42,067 bases of DNA from Candidatus Eiseniibacteriota bacterium (GTDB lineage: Bacteria > Orphanbacterota > Orphanbacteria > Orphanbacterales > Orphanbacteraceae). The position numbers were made by a program, and so were the translations under genes. Every line of letters starts with the position of its first letter. Within the stretch, counting starts at the first letter, position 1. The stretch lies in contig JAJRWB010000027.1 of NCBI GenBank assembly GCA_024276995.1, positions 1 to 42,067 on the forward strand, in the 5' to 3' direction. Positions 1,249-26,561 of this stretch are shown piece by piece. Below the pieces are notes generated by a model, which saw nothing but the letters and a program-made list of their open reading frames with translations, had not been told where the DNA came from and ran no database searches.

Positions 1249-1274
1249 GGTCGACCGACACCGGCGATCGCGAA

Positions 1275-3125
1275 TCACCGCGAGAGGAGTTTCTCCAGGT
1301 TCGCCGCCGAGGCAGAGGAGGAAGGATTCAGTTGGACCGCCTTCCTGAGGCAGCGTTCCGCCTCGGCTCGCCGGTTCTCTTTCGCCAAGAGCACCCCGAG
1401 GGCGGCCCACGCATCGTCCCGTGTGGGATCGTATTTCAACGCGATCCGGTACTCGCTCTCGGCGCTTTCGGTTCGGCCCTCTTCCTCGTAGAGAACGCCC
1501 AAGGCATAGTGGGCGGCGGCATGAGAAGGAACGGCGCGGATGGCGCTTTGAAGGTGTTCCTTCGCCCCTTCAAGATCGGAACGTCCGGCCAGAAGGAGGG
1601 CGAGGTTGCAGTGGGCGGCGGCGTAATCTCCGGCGAGGTCGAGGGAACGGCGATATGCGGCGAGTGCGGCGGCGGTGTCGCCCCGCGCCGCGGCGAGCAC
1701 GCCGATGGCGTTCCACGGATCGGGATCGTCGTTTTCCCGGCGCACCGCTTCGCGGAACCACTTCTCAGCGGCCGGTCCGTTTCCCTCCATATAATAGATC
1801 CGCCCGAGATTGTACTCCGTGCGCACCGGGTTGTAGTGCTTCATGCCGAATGGATCGATCGCCGTGACGATGAACAGGAGAATAGCGACCGAAAGACCCG
1901 CCGCGCGACGGACCGGGCGGACGACGGGGGGGCCGAGGAAGAGGCCGGGAGCGAGGAGCACGATGAACGGCCATCCGCCGGCACGATAACGCACGGCGAA
2001 GACGGTGAGAATCACGGTGATCCAGTAACCGGCGAATCCCGCCGCGCAGAAGCGGAACGCGCCGCGGCCGGCGGCGGCGACGAGAAAACCGAAAGCGAGA
2101 GGAACGAGAAACGCCGCATTGAACAGCGCGTTTCGAAGGAGCGGCGACTGTCGCTCGAAACGACCGACGTCCTGGCTCGCGTCGATCGGGTAGTCGGACG
2201 CGAAGAGAACCGCCTTTCTCGCGAACAGGCCGAGCTGACGCCCGGGGTCGCGCCGGGCATCGTCCCACGCGGCCCGAAGAAACCACGCGCTCGAGTCGAC
2301 ACTTCCCCGCGCGCCGGCGAGTTCGGGCCACGAAACGAGTTTCTCCCACCGGTAGCCGGGCCGCACGCGGGGTGCGCCGTTCGCTCCTTCGCCGTTCCCG
2401 ATGTAGATATTCAGACCGGCGTTTCCCTGCAGCGGAAGGGGATTCTCGCTTGACGCCGCGCGAAAGGCCGAAAGAGGGGCGAGCGCGAGAACGACTCCGG
2501 CCGCCAGCGGCGCGGCGGCGCGCCATCCTCCCCGGCGCCATAGCACCGCCGCGATCAGGACCGTCGAAAGGCCCGACCCTGGATGGGTCAGCCAGGAAAG
2601 GCCGCAGAGGACGCCCGCCGCGGCCACCGTCTTCGAACCGGCGTTCCCGCGAACAATGAGAAGATAAAGAATCATCGAATGGAGGAATACCTGGAACACC
2701 ACCGGGAGAAGTTGCACCTGGAAGTAGAGAAGGACGGGCGAGGCGGCCATCAGGACGCCGGCGACATTGCCGTAACGCCTCGACACGAGTCGGACGCCGC
2801 ACGAACGGACGAGAACGGCCGATGCGGCGACGAGGAAGAGTTGGAAGAGATAGACCGTCGCCGGGACGGCGCCCGAAACGAGGACGAACGGGACGAGCAG
2901 GAGAGGATAGACGATGCCGTGTATCGACGCGGCGGCGGCGGGATGGATTCCCGCGACGATCGCCCTCGCCTCGGCGACATATTCCGCGGCGTCGATAATC
3001 GGATGGGAGAGAAAGGGATCGTCGCGGAGAAAGAGATAGTTGGCCGCGCCGCACGCGAGAGAGAAGACCACGAGAAGAAAAACGTCGCCCCTATGGCCGG
3101 GCGATTTTTCGACTCTTTCGATCAA
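1275..3125 (-). CDS. Membrane glycosyltransferase-like (GT-C/PMT-type) protein with C-terminal TPR repeats
   Basis: The 616-residue product has an N-terminal multi-spanning membrane region (about residues 15-420) followed by four to five tetratricopeptide repeats (about 430-610). These are recognisable from units such as NAIGVLAAARGDTAAALAAY and HYALGVLYEEEGRTESAESE. The membrane part resembles ArnT/PMT-type lipid-linked-sugar transferases, including an acidic first periplasmic loop (DDPFLSHPIIDAAEYV). The specific reaction cannot be read from sequence. The start is TTG at 3125 behind GGGGGGAGGG; no good ATG lies nearby. A protein of the same architecture is encoded at 24573-26561, sharing a GNAGLNIYIGNGEGANG-like loop. 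It is divergent from the NCS2 permease across 127 bp. Confidence 0.75.
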   Translation of the reverse strand: MIERVEKSPGHRGDVFLLVVFSLACGAANYLFLRDDPFLSHPIIDAAEYVAEARAIVAGIHPAAAASIHGIVYPLLLVPFVLVSGAVPATVYLFQLFLVAASAVLVRSCGVRLVSRRYGNVAGVLMAASPVLLYFQVQLLPVVFQVFLHSMILYLLIVRGNAGSKTVAAAGVLCGLSWLTHPGSGLSTVLIAAVLWRRGGWRAAAPLAAGVVLALAPLSAFRAASSENPLPLQGNAGLNIYIGNGEGANGAPRVRPGYRWEKLVSWPELAGARGSVDSSAWFLRAAWDDARRDPGRQLGLFARKAVLFASDYPIDASQDVGRFERQSPLLRNALFNAAFLVPLAFGFLVAAAGRGAFRFCAAGFAGYWITVILTVFAVRYRAGGWPFIVLLAPGLFLGPPVVRPVRRAAGLSVAILLFIVTAIDPFGMKHYNPVRTEYNLGRIYYMEGNGPAAEKWFREAVRRENDDPDPWNAIGVLAAARGDTAAALAAYRRSLDLAGDYAAAHCNLALLLAGRSDLEGAKEHLQSAIRAVPSHAAAHYALGVLYEEEGRTESAESEYRIALKYDPTRDDAWAALGVLLAKENRRAEAERCLRKAVQLNPSSSASAANLEKLLSR

Positions 3126-16692: not shown

Positions 16693-16731
16693 CCCGCATG
16701 GTTGCCGTTTCACGTTTTCACCTGTAGAATC

Positions 16732-16920
16732 ATGCGGGCCGATACCGCACCTTTTCGCGAGGAGTTCTCCTTGGCCGACGGGAAAGAGGTTCCATCCGGG
16801 TACCAAGAACTCTCGGAGCTTCTCGACCGGAACGAACTCGACGGCGCGCCGTGGAAAGACACGTGGCCATGCCTCTCGCTCGGCTTCTTTCATCGGCTGA
16901 TCCCGGTCCGGGCGGCATGA
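16732..16920 (+). CDS. Small hypothetical protein coupled to the RF2-like gene
   Basis: The frame encodes 62 residues, MRADTAPFREEFSLADGKEV at the start and LGFFHRLIPVRAA at the end. Third positions are about 73 percent G/C, compatible with coding. Its TGA overlaps the first ATG of the RF2-like gene (ATGA, 16917-16920). It lies in the same frame as the distal half of that gene, with the middle part one frame away, so the whole region 16732-17820 could be one disrupted gene. No family was recognised and no strong ribosome-binding site precedes it. Confidence 0.4.
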   Translation: MRADTAPFREEFSLADGKEVPSGYQELSELLDRNELDGAPWKDTWPCLSLGFFHRLIPVRAA

Positions 16921-17820
16921 TCCGGATCAACCTGCGAGGGAGCGCCGCCGTGGCGGAAACGGTTCCTCTCGACGAAGACGATCTGCGCATCGTCGGCGAC
17001 GCCCCGGCGGCGAGAAAGGAACTGAAGATTCCGCCGAGTGGAATCGGCAGGATGGTCAATGCCGCCGGACAGAGAATCACGGGGCTCAATGGGAGACTCG
17101 GCTTCGACGATCTGGTCGGCGAGCGCGCTTCGATCCAGGGCCGCATGGAGGAACCGAATTTCTGGGACCGGCCGGTCGAAGCGGCATGTCGAGTGGATCC
17201 GGGAGCTGGCGGGGGTCTACCTCGGGTGGGCGAAGCGGCGCGGTTACACCGCGAAGGTGCTCGGCGAGAACCACGGCGCCGGCGAAGGTAGCTGCGCCGT
17301 GCTCCTCTTGATCGGCGGCATGAACGCCTTCGGGCTCCTTCGGAATGAAGAGGGAGTGCACCGGAAAAGGGTGGAGGAAAAGAAGAGCCTCGCACGATTC
17401 GACTGCACCGTGGCGGTGATCCCCGACGTGCAGGAGGAAAGGGAACGAGGAGCGGACATCCGTCTCAACGTGAAGAAGCTGTCGCCGGCGAGGAGGGGAT
17501 GGAGGATCCGCTCCCTTTCGCGGAGGGTCACCCTCGATTCCGCTCATGGCGAAACACGTCTCGTGTTCCTTTCCGACACCGGGCTGGCCGGCAACCGAAA
17601 ACTGGCGATCGAGTTCTTCCTCTCCTTCCTGCATCACGAGAAAGACGCGCGCGGCGCGAGAAAGAAACCTGCCGCGGGCGTCTGGGGGTCGATCGTGCGG
17701 ACGATGACGATCGGATCGAAGTCATCGGTTGTGGATCACGCCACTCGCATTTCGTTGAGAAACGTGAAGAGCTATCTTTCCGGGAAGATCGACACCCTCC
17801 TTCTCGAGAGGATCTTGTGA
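16917..17820 (+). pseudogene. Degenerate peptide-chain release factor 2 paralogue with a frame break and no GGQ
   Basis: The first frame (from ATG 16917) contains an RF2-like N-terminus, MVNAAGQRITGLNGRLGFDD then MEEPNFWDRP. After a +1 shift near 17166-17185 the second frame reads WIRELAGVYLGWAKRRGYTA and EEGVHRKR, and ends in WGSIVRTMTI and a C-terminus like RF2's. Compared with RF2, about 90 residues of the PCRF domain are missing at the junction. The SPF stop-codon-recognition tripeptide is lost, and the GGQ loop is replaced by SPARRGWRIRS. Third-position G/C bias persists in both frames, which argues that the frames were under selection until recently. The usual RF2 autoregulatory site (CTT TGA C) is absent: CTCGGCTTCGAC stands there. 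It may be a decaying prfB copy or a divergent non-catalytic protein carrying one sequence error. Confidence 0.7.
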
Positions 17821-17854
17821 AACGAGCCCCGTTCCCCGCCCCGCGGAGGCGGCG

Positions 17855-19837
17855 ATGAACGCCGCGTCACCGCGCCCCTTCGACTTCGCCGGCGCGAGCC
17901 GCAGGGAGTGGCTTGTTACCAACGGTCTCGGCGGTTTCGCGATGGGCACGGTGGCGGGCGTTCTCACCCGGCGCTACCACGGGACGCTGATCGCGGCGCT
18001 CGGTGCGCCGACCGGGAGAACCCTTCTCGCGGGCCGATCGGAGGAGGTGCTGCTCTCCGCCGCGGGGGAGATCCCCCTGCACGTCGACCGGAGGCCGGGC
18101 GGCGGGATCGAAGGAGAAGGATACCGCCGGATCCTTTCGTTTCACCTCGACCGGTCGATCCCGGTCTGGGAGTACGAGACCGGCGGCGGCATCCTCGAAA
18201 AGCGGATCTGGATGAAAGAGGGGGCGAACACGACATACGTTCGCTACCTCCTCTCCGCCGGAAGCGCCCGCGTTTCTCTTCGCGTCTCGCCGTGCGTCGC
18301 ATTCCGCGACTACCACGATCTCGCCGGCCCGATCGACCGGGAGATCGGCGTCGCCGCCGCGCCCGGCGGCCTGGAAATCTCGCTTCGCGGCGACCCATAT
18401 CTTAGAATCCTCTCCGCGGCGGGCGAGGCGAAGGCGCGCCCCGGCCGGGCGGGAGAACTCTTCCTCGCCATGGAGGCGTACAGGGGACTCGACGATACGG
18501 AGTCGCTCTTTCGGGCGGGAGACTTCCTCTTCCGCCTCCACCCGGGAGAGGCGGTAACGGTGGTGTTCACCGCCGAGGAGGAGGAAGAGATCGACGGGGA
18601 AAGCGCCCTCGCCGAACGGAGGGAGCGGGACGATCGGCTCCTTCGCCGGGCGGGGGGTCTCATCGCAGGCGCGGGAAGCCTCGCGCCTACGGTGGAGCAG
18701 CTCGTTCTCGCGGCGGACCGGTTCATGGCGAAGCGAAGCCGTCCCGGCGGCGCCCCCGGGCGCACGATCATCGCCGGCTACCCGTGGTTCACCGACTGGG
18801 GACGCGACACGATGATCGCCCTCCCGGGGATCGCTCTTTGCACCGGACGCGAAGAGACGGCGATCGAGATTCTCCGCACCTTCGCCGACCATGTCGACCG
18901 CGGCATGGTTCCGAACCGCTTTCCCGACGACGGCGAGGAAGCGGAGTACAACACGGCGGACGCATCGCTCTGGTTCTTCGAGGCAACGGCCGTCACGGTG
19001 GAGGCGACCGGTAGGACCGATTTTCTCGAAGAGATCTTCCCCGTGCTCGCCGGGATCGTGGAGCATCACGTTCGCGGCACACGGCACAACATCCACGTCG
19101 ATCTCGGCGATGGACTCCTTTACGCCGGCGAACCGGGGGTGCAGCTCACCTGGATGGACGCCATGGTGGACGAGTGGGTGGTGACGCCGCGCATCGGCAA
19201 GCCGGTGGAGATCAACGCCCTGTGGTACAACGCGCTGCGAACCATGGCCGGCTTCGCGGCGCGGCTGGGGGAACCGTTCGACTACTACGAAGAGGCCGCC
19301 GACCGCGTGGCGGCGAGTTTCGACCGCTTCTGGTACGCCGAGGGAGACTACTGCTACGACGTGATCGACTCCCCCGACGGCGATGACGACCCGACGCTCA
19401 GGCCGAACCAGATCCTCGCCGTCTCCCTCCCCTATTCGCCCCTCGACGAGGAGCGCCGGCGCGCGGTGACGGCGCGGTGCGAAATCGATCTTCTCACGCC
19501 GCACGGCCTCCGCTCGCTCGCCCCGGGCGACGAGAACTACAAGGGCCGCTACGGGGGCGACCGCCGTGCGCGGGACGGGGCGTATCACCAAGGGACGGTA
19601 TGGGGATGGCTGATCGGGCCTTTCGCCGCCGCCCATTACAGGGTACACGGCGACGCCGCCCTGGCGCGCGCGTATCTCCTTCCCCTACTCGATACGATCG
19701 ACGAGCACGGCGTGGGAAACCTGAGCGAGATCTTCGACGGCGATGCCCCGTTCACGGCGCGCGGTTGCCCGGCACAGGCGTGGACCGTGGCGGAAGTGCT
19801 CCGGCTGCTCCATCTCACGTCGCCCGGCGCCGCGTGA
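17855..19837 (+). CDS. Glycogen debranching enzyme (amylo-alpha-1,6-glucosidase, GH133)
   Basis: The 660-residue product has the GDE_N domain (about residues 10-240; REWLVTNGLGGFAMGT at the start) and a GDE_C (alpha/alpha)6-barrel (about 280-655). The barrel contains IIAGYPWFTDWGRDTMIALPG, VPNRFPDDGEEAEYNTADAS, WMDAMVDEWVVTPR, KPVEINALWYNAL and YHQGTVWGWLIGPF, which are family hallmarks including acidic catalytic residues. It removes alpha-1,6 branches from glycogen or maltodextrin in the cytoplasm. The start is ATG at 17855 behind CGGAGG. It ends 22 bases from the convergent GH172 gene. No glycogen synthase or phosphorylase is nearby. Confidence 0.9.
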   Translation: MNAASPRPFDFAGASRREWLVTNGLGGFAMGTVAGVLTRRYHGTLIAALGAPTGRTLLAGRSEEVLLSAAGEIPLHVDRRPGGGIEGEGYRRILSFHLDRSIPVWEYETGGGILEKRIWMKEGANTTYVRYLLSAGSARVSLRVSPCVAFRDYHDLAGPIDREIGVAAAPGGLEISLRGDPYLRILSAAGEAKARPGRAGELFLAMEAYRGLDDTESLFRAGDFLFRLHPGEAVTVVFTAEEEEEIDGESALAERRERDDRLLRRAGGLIAGAGSLAPTVEQLVLAADRFMAKRSRPGGAPGRTIIAGYPWFTDWGRDTMIALPGIALCTGREETAIEILRTFADHVDRGMVPNRFPDDGEEAEYNTADASLWFFEATAVTVEATGRTDFLEEIFPVLAGIVEHHVRGTRHNIHVDLGDGLLYAGEPGVQLTWMDAMVDEWVVTPRIGKPVEINALWYNALRTMAGFAARLGEPFDYYEEAADRVAASFDRFWYAEGDYCYDVIDSPDGDDDPTLRPNQILAVSLPYSPLDEERRRAVTARCEIDLLTPHGLRSLAPGDENYKGRYGGDRRARDGAYHQGTVWGWLIGPFAAAHYRVHGDAALARAYLLPLLDTIDEHGVGNLSEIFDGDAPFTARGCPAQAWTVAEVLRLLHLTSPGAA

Positions 19838-24572: not shown

Positions 24573-26561
24573 ATGAGCCTGCGGCAAAACGGCGTGACGG
24601 GATCGATCGAGGGGTCGGGGGTCTTTCTCGGAGCCCTCGCCCTCAGGGTATTCCACATCGCCGCCATCCGGTCGCTTCCATCATTCGACCATCCCTACGC
24701 CGGTCTCGACGCCGCCCTCTACGTCCGCCTCGCCAGGCTGATCGCCTCGGGCGCACTCGTCCCGGCTGAGCTCCTCCACGCGGCGCCCCTCTACGCATGG
24801 TACCTCGGCGGGGTAACGCGCCTTTTCGGCGATCCGTTTCTCGCCCCACGCCTGATCCAGGCGTTTCTCGGCGCGACGGCGGCGACGCTCCTCTACGTTA
24901 CGACGCGGCGAATCGCCGGGCCGGCGGCGGGACGCATCGCGGGAACGATCGCCGCTGTTTATCCCCCCTTTCTTCTTTACGAAGGAACCCTTCAAAGCGC
25001 GGCACTCGTTCCCTTCCTCGTATCGCTTCTTCTCTACCTGCTCGTCCGCGCCGGTTCGCCGCGGGCACACTTCCTCGGCGGGGTGGTGACGGGCATTCTC
25101 GTGATCGACAGGCCCGACGCGCTCGCCCTTCTCCTCTTCCTCCCCACCGCCGTCGCGGCCGCCGGACGGGGGAAACGGCGCGCCGCGTCGCTCGCCGCCG
25201 GCGCACTCCTCGCGCTCTCGCCCGTCACCGTTTTAAGCAGCCTTCGCGCCGGCGGTTTCGTCCCGGTGAGCGCCCACGGCGGCATTCACCTTTTCATCGG
25301 AAACCATGACGGCGCCGACGGTCGCCTCTCTCCCGTGAAAGGGATCGAGCCGACACCGGCCGGTTTCGACGTCGACGCGCGCCGCCTCGCCGAGTCGGAA
25401 ACGGGCGTGAAGATGACGCCCGCGGAAGTGTCGCGCTTCTGGTCGCGCAAGGCGATCGCCTGGATGAGCGCCCACCCGGGCCGCTTGATCGCTCTCGCGG
25501 CGAAGAAGTTCCTCCTCTTCTGGAACGACTATGAAATCCCGAACAACGAGGATCTCTATTTCCTGCGCCGTTACTCCTATCCCTTGGCGATTCCCCTGCC
25601 GCTCTTCGGCCTCGTCGCGCCGTTCGCCCTGTTCGCCCTCGTCCGGTGGACCGTCCGCGGCGGTTCTGCCGTCTTCCCGGCGGCGCTCATCGCCGCTTCC
25701 CTCGCGTGCGCGATGCTCTTTTTCGTCACCGCGCGCTACCGCCTCGGGGCGCTTCCGCCTCTTATCGTTCTCGCCTCGGCGGGCGTCGTCGCGGTGACGC
25801 GCGAGATCGCCGATCGCCGCTTCGCCGGCGCGTTTCTCCTCGTCCCGCTCGTCGTGTTCTGCAACCTCCCCGTGAGACGTTTCGATTTCGCCGCGCCGGA
25901 AAGCCGCCTCGCCGGTTCGTTTCTCGCCGCGGGCGACGTCGAAGGGGCCCGGGAACATTACCACCGGGCGCTCGACATCGATCCCGCCCGCGCGGAGGCC
26001 CTCTCCGGTCTCGCCGAGGTCTACCGGCGCACCGGCCTGGACGACCGGGCGCTCGCGATCTACCGGCGGCTGCTGGAGATTCCCGGCGCCGGCGATGACG
26101 CCCGTAACGACATGGCGACGCTCCTCGCGTCGCGCGGCGAAACGGACGAGGCGGCACGTCTGCTCGAAGAGCTGATCGATCGCGACCCCGACGACGCCGC
26201 GGCACTCACCAACCTGGCGGCCGTGCGGATCGCCGGGGGCGATCCGAAGAGCGCGGAAGCGCTCCTTCGCAGGTCGCTCCGGATCGCGCCGGAGAGCGAG
26301 GAAACACTTCTGAATCTCGCGGCGCTCCTGATCCGGGCGGGGAGAAGAAGCGAGGCATCGCCCCTCGTCGACGAGGTTCTCGTCTTGTCACCCGACTCTC
26401 CACGCGGACTGTTCAACGCGGGCATGATTCGCGCTCTCGAAGGGGACGCCCGGGGAGCGCTTCGTTTCTGGGACCGCCTCGATGCGATCGACCCCGGCTA
26501 CCCCGGTCTGGATGAGAACCGGGAAAGAGCTTTGCGCCTGCTCGAAGGAGGGGAAGGATGA
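24573..26561 (+). CDS. Membrane glycosyltransferase-like protein with C-terminal TPR repeats
   Basis: The 662-residue protein mirrors the architecture at 1275-3125. A multi-span membrane region (about residues 15-470) has an acidic first loop (DHPYAGLDAALYVRLARLIA) and the loop AHGGIHLFIGNHDGADG; TPR repeats (about 490-655) follow, with units such as ALSGLAEVYRRTGLDDRALA and LLNLAALLIRAGRRSEASP. It probably transfers sugars from lipid carriers or acts in envelope polymer assembly, with the TPRs as partner-binding modules; substrate unknown. ATG at 24573 has only a weak AAAGAA upstream. Its stop overlaps the start of a lipoprotein rhodanese (ATGA). Confidence 0.75.
   Translation: MSLRQNGVTGSIEGSGVFLGALALRVFHIAAIRSLPSFDHPYAGLDAALYVRLARLIASGALVPAELLHAAPLYAWYLGGVTRLFGDPFLAPRLIQAFLGATAATLLYVTTRRIAGPAAGRIAGTIAAVYPPFLLYEGTLQSAALVPFLVSLLLYLLVRAGSPRAHFLGGVVTGILVIDRPDALALLLFLPTAVAAAGRGKRRAASLAAGALLALSPVTVLSSLRAGGFVPVSAHGGIHLFIGNHDGADGRLSPVKGIEPTPAGFDVDARRLAESETGVKMTPAEVSRFWSRKAIAWMSAHPGRLIALAAKKFLLFWNDYEIPNNEDLYFLRRYSYPLAIPLPLFGLVAPFALFALVRWTVRGGSAVFPAALIAASLACAMLFFVTARYRLGALPPLIVLASAGVVAVTREIADRRFAGAFLLVPLVVFCNLPVRRFDFAAPESRLAGSFLAAGDVEGAREHYHRALDIDPARAEALSGLAEVYRRTGLDDRALAIYRRLLEIPGAGDDARNDMATLLASRGETDEAARLLEELIDRDPDDAAALTNLAAVRIAGGDPKSAEALLRRSLRIAPESEETLLNLAALLIRAGRRSEASPLVDEVLVLSPDSPRGLFNAGMIRALEGDARGALRFWDRLDAIDPGYPGLDENRERALRLLEGGEG

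What the first reader, a model, noticed from the sequence alone, without database searches (positions are those of the whole stretch)
16917..17820. Release-factor-2 paralogue without SPF or GGQ and with a frame break
The gene keeps the RF2 N-terminus, the WAKRRGY segment, EEGVHR and the WGS...R C-terminal region, but has lost the stop-codon recognition tripeptide, the GGQ peptidyl-hydrolysis motif, about 90 residues of PCRF domain and the RF2 autoregulatory frameshift site. Coding bias is still strong in both frames. A catalytically dead release factor could bind ribosomes or RNA in a new role; the plant plastid protein PrfB3, which lost release motifs and stabilises an mRNA, is a precedent. 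Alternatively it is a prfB copy in decay.
Basis: partly seen in the sequence, partly recalled or inferred. Interest (0 to 1): 0.68.

Follow-up and report, generated by a model that had tools for sequence, protein, structure and literature searches.

The report
Broken Hsp100–dead release factor fusion
The odd release-factor gene is a broken leftover of a much larger gene whose intact relatives, found in four other bacterial groups, join a protein-unfolding motor to a release factor that can no longer release; this combination appears undescribed and hints at a motor that may be aimed at ribosomes.

Summary
In detail: 16833-17820 encodes RF2-like sequence without SPF or GGQ, in two frames, with about 87 codons missing at ~17184. 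The family call was incomplete. The 5' part is not an RF2 N-terminus: it is the end of an Hsp100/Clp D2-small domain plus linker (tblastn 2.6e-14). The fragment belongs to a family of Hsp100 (D1+D2 AAA+)–pseudo-RF2 fusion proteins, 940-1369 aa, some with N-terminal TPR repeats. I found intact members in four other phylum-level groups. They form one clade with the window fragment (97/93), apart from canonical RF2. The RF-like part is under purifying selection where testable (dN/dS ~0.19). No member has SPF, or GGQ at the catalytic loop. D1 Walker B is degenerate in all, and 20 of 21 keep an xGF tripeptide where ClpC docks ClpP. Genomes carrying fusions also keep canonical release factors and ClpP. 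In this genome the gene has lost ~950 upstream residues and ~87 internal codons, so it is most likely a pseudogene; no close relative keeps it. No family model, Burroughs & Aravind's RF survey section, or paper found here describes the fusion. Likely role (inferred, ~35%): a ribosome-aimed unfoldase feeding ClpP. Side finding: a related RF-less 610-aa Hsp100 is conserved in this family.

The parts
16702..16730 (+). sigma-70-like promoter (TTGCCG-17-TAGAAT) upstream of the remnant
   Evidence: consensus scan, 1 found versus 0.0 expected in shuffles; functional role inferred
16833..16926 (+). remnant of the end of an Hsp100/Clp D2-small domain (RRAVERHVAMPLARLLSS...MIRINL), frame 3
   Evidence: tblastn of fusion protein L096 aa 953 onward, E=2.6e-14 for 16833-17183; score 168 versus max 58 in shuffles
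16927..17040 (+). remnant of the linker between AAA+ motor and RF2-like domain, frame 3
   Evidence: same alignment to L096/L099; boundary placed from the L096-RF2 alignment, where RF2 similarity begins at L096 ~aa 1026 of the ORF
17041..17183 (+). start of the RF2-like helical/PCRF domain up to ...EEPNFWDRPVEAA, frame 3
   Evidence: alignments
17184..17193 (+). deletion and frame-change junction; about 87 codons present in L096 are missing
   Evidence: L096 match ends at aa 1072 in frame 3 and resumes at ~1160 in frame 1
17185..17820 (+). RF2-like C-terminal part (domains 2-3 and C-terminal segment) without SPF and GGQ, frame 1, to the stop codon
   Evidence: tblastn E=3.4e-51 to L096, which is 44% identical; Pfam PCRF 3e-9; AlphaFold2 model pLDDT 86.7 matching RF1/RF2 in the PDB, E 1e-10

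Best explanation
The window holds a decayed remnant (pseudogene) of a gene for an Hsp100-pseudo-release-factor fusion: probably TPR repeats, AAA+ D1, AAA+ D2, and a C-terminal RF2-like domain without stop-codon recognition or peptidyl-hydrolase motifs. Two losses made it: the upstream ~950 codons, and ~87 codons plus frame at ~17184. Identity of the remnant is shown by sequence. That it is non-functional is inferred from the damage. In the intact relatives the most likely mechanism (inferred, about 35%) is this: the RF2-like domain keeps the release-factor fold and docks on ribosomes or an RF partner without triggering release, and so brings a hexameric unfoldase to them. The unfoldase is powered by D2 and carries a ClpC-type loop for ClpP, so it would extract the nascent chain or another component and hand it to ClpP. 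The confidence below is for the identity and decayed state of the remnant, not for the mechanism.
For: Remnant: the two pieces match consecutive parts of one intact protein, L096 aa 953-1072 and ~1157-1368, and sit with L096/L099 at 100/100 in the tree. Family: AAA_2, ClpB_D2-small and PCRF on single ORFs; about 45 genomes of one family plus members in f55, f126, f143, f248, f277 and f301; RF-like parts of the 22 fusions tested form one clade 97/93 and their D2 domains one clade 90/90. Selection: median dN/dS 0.19 for the RF-like part over 275 non-independent pairs. Motifs: no SPF in any member and no GGQ at the loop; D2 Walker A/B kept in all but one; D1 Walker B DE lost in all; [LIVMW]GF at the ClpP-loop position in 20 of 21, with L132 having GGF, aligned to ClpC and absent from ClpB. 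Full-length model of L034 matches ClpC-ClpP structures best. ClpP and GGQ-bearing RFs present in all 13 fusion-bearing or window genomes tested.
Against: No expression or biochemical data. The window copy could still make a short protein, since 211 codons stay open. Ribosome binding by the RF2-like domain is untested, and the loss of SPF weakens decoding-site contacts. The ClpP-loop tripeptide alone does not prove ClpP binding. Neighbouring genes give no translation-related context. MAG assembly error at the deletions cannot be excluded. The fate of the 5' start is unclear: 16731-16832 has no similarity to fusions above shuffles.
Confidence: 0.8

Rival explanations
1. The window gene is a functional short RF2-derived protein that was reduced to its C-terminal part and binds ribosomes or RNA without releasing.
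For: 211 codons remain open with strong coding bias; in genome G142 a similar RF-like part stands alone in a 397-aa ORF with no AAA+ part detected in the surrounding 9 kb.
Against: Frame break inside the conserved fold, ~87 codons of the PCRF domain missing, no homologue in the six other genomes of the family, and a 5' piece in another frame that is leftover Clp sequence.
Confidence: 0.1
2. It is an intact fusion gene or a milder lesion, mis-assembled in this metagenome-derived contig.
For: The genome is a draft (81 contigs); deletions can arise at assembly; intact relatives exist.
Against: The AAA+ part does not appear elsewhere in the genome: only ClpC, ClpB and the RF-less 610-aa Hsp100 match; flanking genes are intact on both sides.
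Confidence: 0.1
3. In intact relatives the RF2-like domain is not for ribosome docking but is an adaptor for another substrate, for example RF1/RF2 partners such as PrmC or RF3, or a structural add-on of a ClpB-like disaggregase.
For: SPF and GGQ loss and divergence of domain 3; invariant positions are mostly fold-defining (W, G, E.G.HR, D); D1 Walker B is degenerate, so the motor differs from ordinary ClpC or ClpB.
Against: The release-factor fold is kept and selection on the domain is strong; the tRNA-mimic fold has no known role away from the ribosome in bacteria (general knowledge).
Confidence: 0.35

Closest known systems
Bacterial release factor 2 (RF2, prfB; TIGR00020)
   Same: RF2-like helical start, PCRF domain, EGVHR and WGS...R segments; predicted fold matches RF1/RF2 structures.
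   Different: No SPF, no GGQ, PF00472 does not detect the domain; it is the C-terminal part of an AAA+ protein; TIGR00020 scores 76-138 bits against a cut-off of 370.
Hsp100/Clp unfoldases ClpC, ClpA, ClpB
   Same: D1 + D2 AAA+ and D2-small domains, and a ClpC-like xGF loop.
   Different: No Clp N-domain or ClpB-type middle domain seen; D1 catalytic DE lost in all members; TPR N-terminus in some; RF2-like C-terminus; far below the ClpA and ClpB equivalog cut-offs.
Vms1 with Cdc48/p97 in eukaryotic ribosome quality control
   Same: Functional analogy only: a release-factor-type domain working with an AAA+ unfoldase on stalled ribosomes (described in PMC6514570).
   Different: Unrelated release-factor fold and a different AAA+ family; Vms1 is considered catalytically active, these RF domains are not; the partners are separate proteins there.
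PrfB3, plant plastid RF2 relative
   Different: Not fused to an AAA+ motor (general knowledge).
ArfB/YaeJ and prfH/RFH
   Same: Bacterial RF paralogues with specialised roles (PMC6514570).
   Different: Both keep the catalytic glutamine and lack any AAA+ fusion.

Membership tests
RF2 (prfB) | SPF stop-codon recognition tripeptide | tested here: not met
   absent in the window and in 24 fusion sequences
RF2 (prfB) | GGQ motif in domain 3 | tested here: not met
   RRGW in the window and other residues in all relatives at that position; the one GGQ string, in L095, lies outside the loop
RF2 (prfB) | RF fold (PCRF domain and superdomain 2/4) | tested here: met
   PF03462 hits; AlphaFold2 model matching RF1/RF2 in the PDB
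RF2 (prfB) | curated prfB score | tested here: not met
   76-138 bits against a cut-off of 370
Hsp100/Clp (ClpC/ClpA class) | two AAA+ modules with D2-small in intact relatives | tested here: met
   only the D2-small end survives in the window
Hsp100/Clp (ClpC/ClpA class) | catalytic Walker B in both D1 and D2 | tested here: not met
   D2 kept in all but L132, D1 lost in all
Hsp100/Clp (ClpC/ClpA class) | ClpP-docking [LIV]GF loop | tested here: met
   LGF/IGF/VGF/MGF/WGF in 20 of 21 members, aligned to ClpC
Hsp100/Clp (ClpC/ClpA class) | stimulation of ClpP degradation | not testable with these tools
   needs biochemistry
Hsp100-pseudo-RF2 fusion family (this report) | RF-like part in one clade with the fusions, apart from RF2 | tested here: met
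   22 sequences including the window, support 97/93; L132 left out for its long branch
Hsp100-pseudo-RF2 fusion family (this report) | intact AAA+ motor in the same ORF | tested here: not met
   absent in the window; remnant only

The most novel reading that the evidence does not exclude
Bacteria of several phyla encode a single-protein ribosome-docked unfoldase: a release-factor-shaped domain that occupies the ribosome without releasing the chain, fused to an Hsp100 motor that extracts the stalled chain or dismantles the complex and passes it to ClpP. It would be a bacterial analogue of the Vms1/Cdc48 arrangement, in one polypeptide.
Probability: 0.3. Interest if true: 0.9.

Novelty: new variant of a known kind. 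Interest (0 to 1): 0.64.

Why it matters
The window copy itself is a broken gene and matters little. The family it points to is conserved, apparently of single origin and spread across distant phyla. It joins the two halves of a quality-control process, ribosome recognition and protein unfolding, in one chain. It gives a direct test of whether release factors have been reused as ribosome-targeting modules for unfoldases, and a candidate for a ribosome-rescue or nascent-chain degradation route that current lists of bacterial rescue systems do not include.

Tried and rejected
1) Simple prfB paralogue or prfB decay: rejected, because the 5' piece is Clp-derived and the RF part clusters with fusions, not with own prfB. 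2) Single-base sequencing frameshift: rejected, since ~87 codons are missing at the frame change. 3) Retained original 5' end at 16731-16832: tested by local alignment in three frames against three fusions, no score above shuffles. 4) Split gene with the AAA+ half elsewhere: the 610-aa Hsp100 on contig 70 is a separate, conserved, RF-less protein that keeps its own D2-small end. 5) Operon context: genes next to the fusions in different groups share no common function; only close relatives keep a neighbour, such as an OTCace-family gene in L093/L131 and DUF6029 in L094/L095. 6) Viral occurrence: none in viral contigs. Plasmid hits at 1e-20 are ordinary Clp proteins; none covers 80% of the query. 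7) The first tree contained spurious 'RF1' rows and did not resolve the fusions; it was cleaned and rebuilt.

Full report
What is in the window. The strand carries an RF2-like coding remnant. In frame 3, 16833-17183 encodes RTRRRAVERHVAMPLARLLSS...MIRINL...EEPNFWDRPVEA. In frame 1, 17185-17817 encodes HVEWIRELAGVYLGWAKRRGY...GLLRNEEGVHRK...WGSIVRT...LLLERIL and ends in a stop. Neither GGQ nor SPF occurs in any frame of 16701-17900. Codon-position composition is coding-like in frame 1 and weaker in frame 3. Upstream lies a multihaem cytochrome gene, downstream a glycogen debranching enzyme gene. A sigma-70-like promoter lies at 16702-16730. The window is a whole contig of a 3.76 Mb, 81-contig genome.

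What it is related to. The genome has ordinary prfA, prfB and an ArfB-like gene. Searching related genomes with the frame-1 protein returned mainly prfA/prfB, plus one hit in a 951-aa ORF of another phylum. That ORF holds AAA D1, AAA_2 (D2), ClpB_D2-small and PCRF on one chain. It is nearly universal in its family: about 45 genomes, 44-100% identical over the C-terminal part. A profile search over 386 diverse genomes found further members as long ORFs: 1035 aa in f248, 1350-1366 aa in f126 and 1369 aa in f143. Phylum-level searches added f277 and f301. The f126 and f143 members carry TPR repeats at the N-terminus. The closest member to the window is L096 (record 'bacterium isolate GMC4.maxbin2.282'), 44% identical over the RF2-like part; a second MAG, L099, is 70% identical to L096.

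The window as a remnant. L096 aligns to the window in two pieces: aa 953-1072 at 16833-17183 (E 2.6e-14) and aa ~1149-1368 at 17158-17814 (E 3.4e-51). The first piece includes the end of the Clp D2-small domain, so the gene was a fusion. The upstream ~950 residues (TPR, D1, most of D2) are absent, ~87 codons are missing at ~17184, and the frame changes there. No other copy exists in the genome and none in the six other genomes of the family. The deletions, not the missing motifs, are what make this copy a probable pseudogene; the missing motifs are shared by the whole family.

The family. All fusion sequences lack SPF, and GGQ at its position is replaced. D1 keeps Walker A but has lost the Walker B DE in all (ED, RD, PR, PD); D2 Walker A and B are kept except in L132. 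At the ClpP-loop position 20 of 21 have [LIVMW]GF and L132 has GGF; this aligns with ClpC's loop and is absent in ClpB. In a cleaned tree the 22 RF-like parts tested, window included, form one clade (97/93) apart from RF2; L132 was left out of that tree for its long branch. D2 domains also form one clade (90/90). The RF-like part evolves under purifying selection in the best-sampled family: median dN/dS 0.19 by a simple NG86 count, 275 non-independent pairs. Every fusion-bearing genome checked has ClpP and at least one canonical GGQ release factor; the single match in G484 comes from an 85%-complete genome.

Structure. An AlphaFold2 model of the window's 17185-17817 product, built with an alignment of relatives, has mean pLDDT 86.7 and matches RF1/RF2 in the PDB (best E 2.2e-10, TM up to ~0.73). 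A model of the full L034 fusion (pLDDT 83.8, pTM 0.53, so domain arrangement is uncertain) matches ClpC in ClpC-ClpP complexes best.

Function. Shown: domain content, motif loss, single clade, selection, co-occurrence with ClpP and RFs. Inferred: the RF2-like domain aims the motor at ribosomes or an RF partner without release; D2 powers unfolding; the xGF loop docks ClpP. I put the combined mechanism at about 35%. Gene neighbourhoods do not help.

Known or not. NCBIfam has no model that covers the fusion; all hits are far below cut-offs. The bacterial section of Burroughs & Aravind 2019 (PMC6514570), a survey of release-factor families, describes RF1, RF2, ArfB and prfH only and no Clp fusion; the word 'Clp' does not occur in the main text. 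Literature searches found nothing, but only open-licence PMC papers are held.

Limits. I could not check reads. The dN/dS test covers only one family, not the window gene, which has no close relative.

Noticed in passing
L141 / G000 contig 70:42605-44422 (-): A 610-aa Hsp100-like protein with D1 and D2, no N-domain and no RF domain, D2 Walker B NG instead of DE and a PVGF loop, is conserved (60-74% identity) in five of the six other genomes of this family, with a fragment in the sixth; its D2 is sister to the fusions' D2 (99/95, long branch).
   Followed up: partly
L063:4091-5281: In genome G142 the RF-like part stands in a 397-aa ORF with no AAA+ part detected in the surrounding 9 kb: another decayed copy or a stand-alone form.
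   Followed up: partly
L097:1-726: Genome G221 has a second RF-like fragment of the family at a contig end, so it may carry two fusion genes.
   Followed up: no
L155:531-2507: A 659-aa RF-less Hsp100 in family member G003 keeps D2 DE and an LGF loop, another divergent paralogue.
   Followed up: no
L153:1831-5355 and L154:548-3487: Large ORFs in two family members (1175 aa, and 980 aa cut by a contig end) seem to combine a Clp-like AAA+ part, a receiver-like middle and an FtsH-like AAA+ protease part; read from the sequence only.
   Followed up: no
window 1263-1811 (-) and 25914-26558 (+): TPR-repeat proteins in the window: the second confirmed by Pfam, the first only by weak similarity to the fusions' TPR part.
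   Followed up: no
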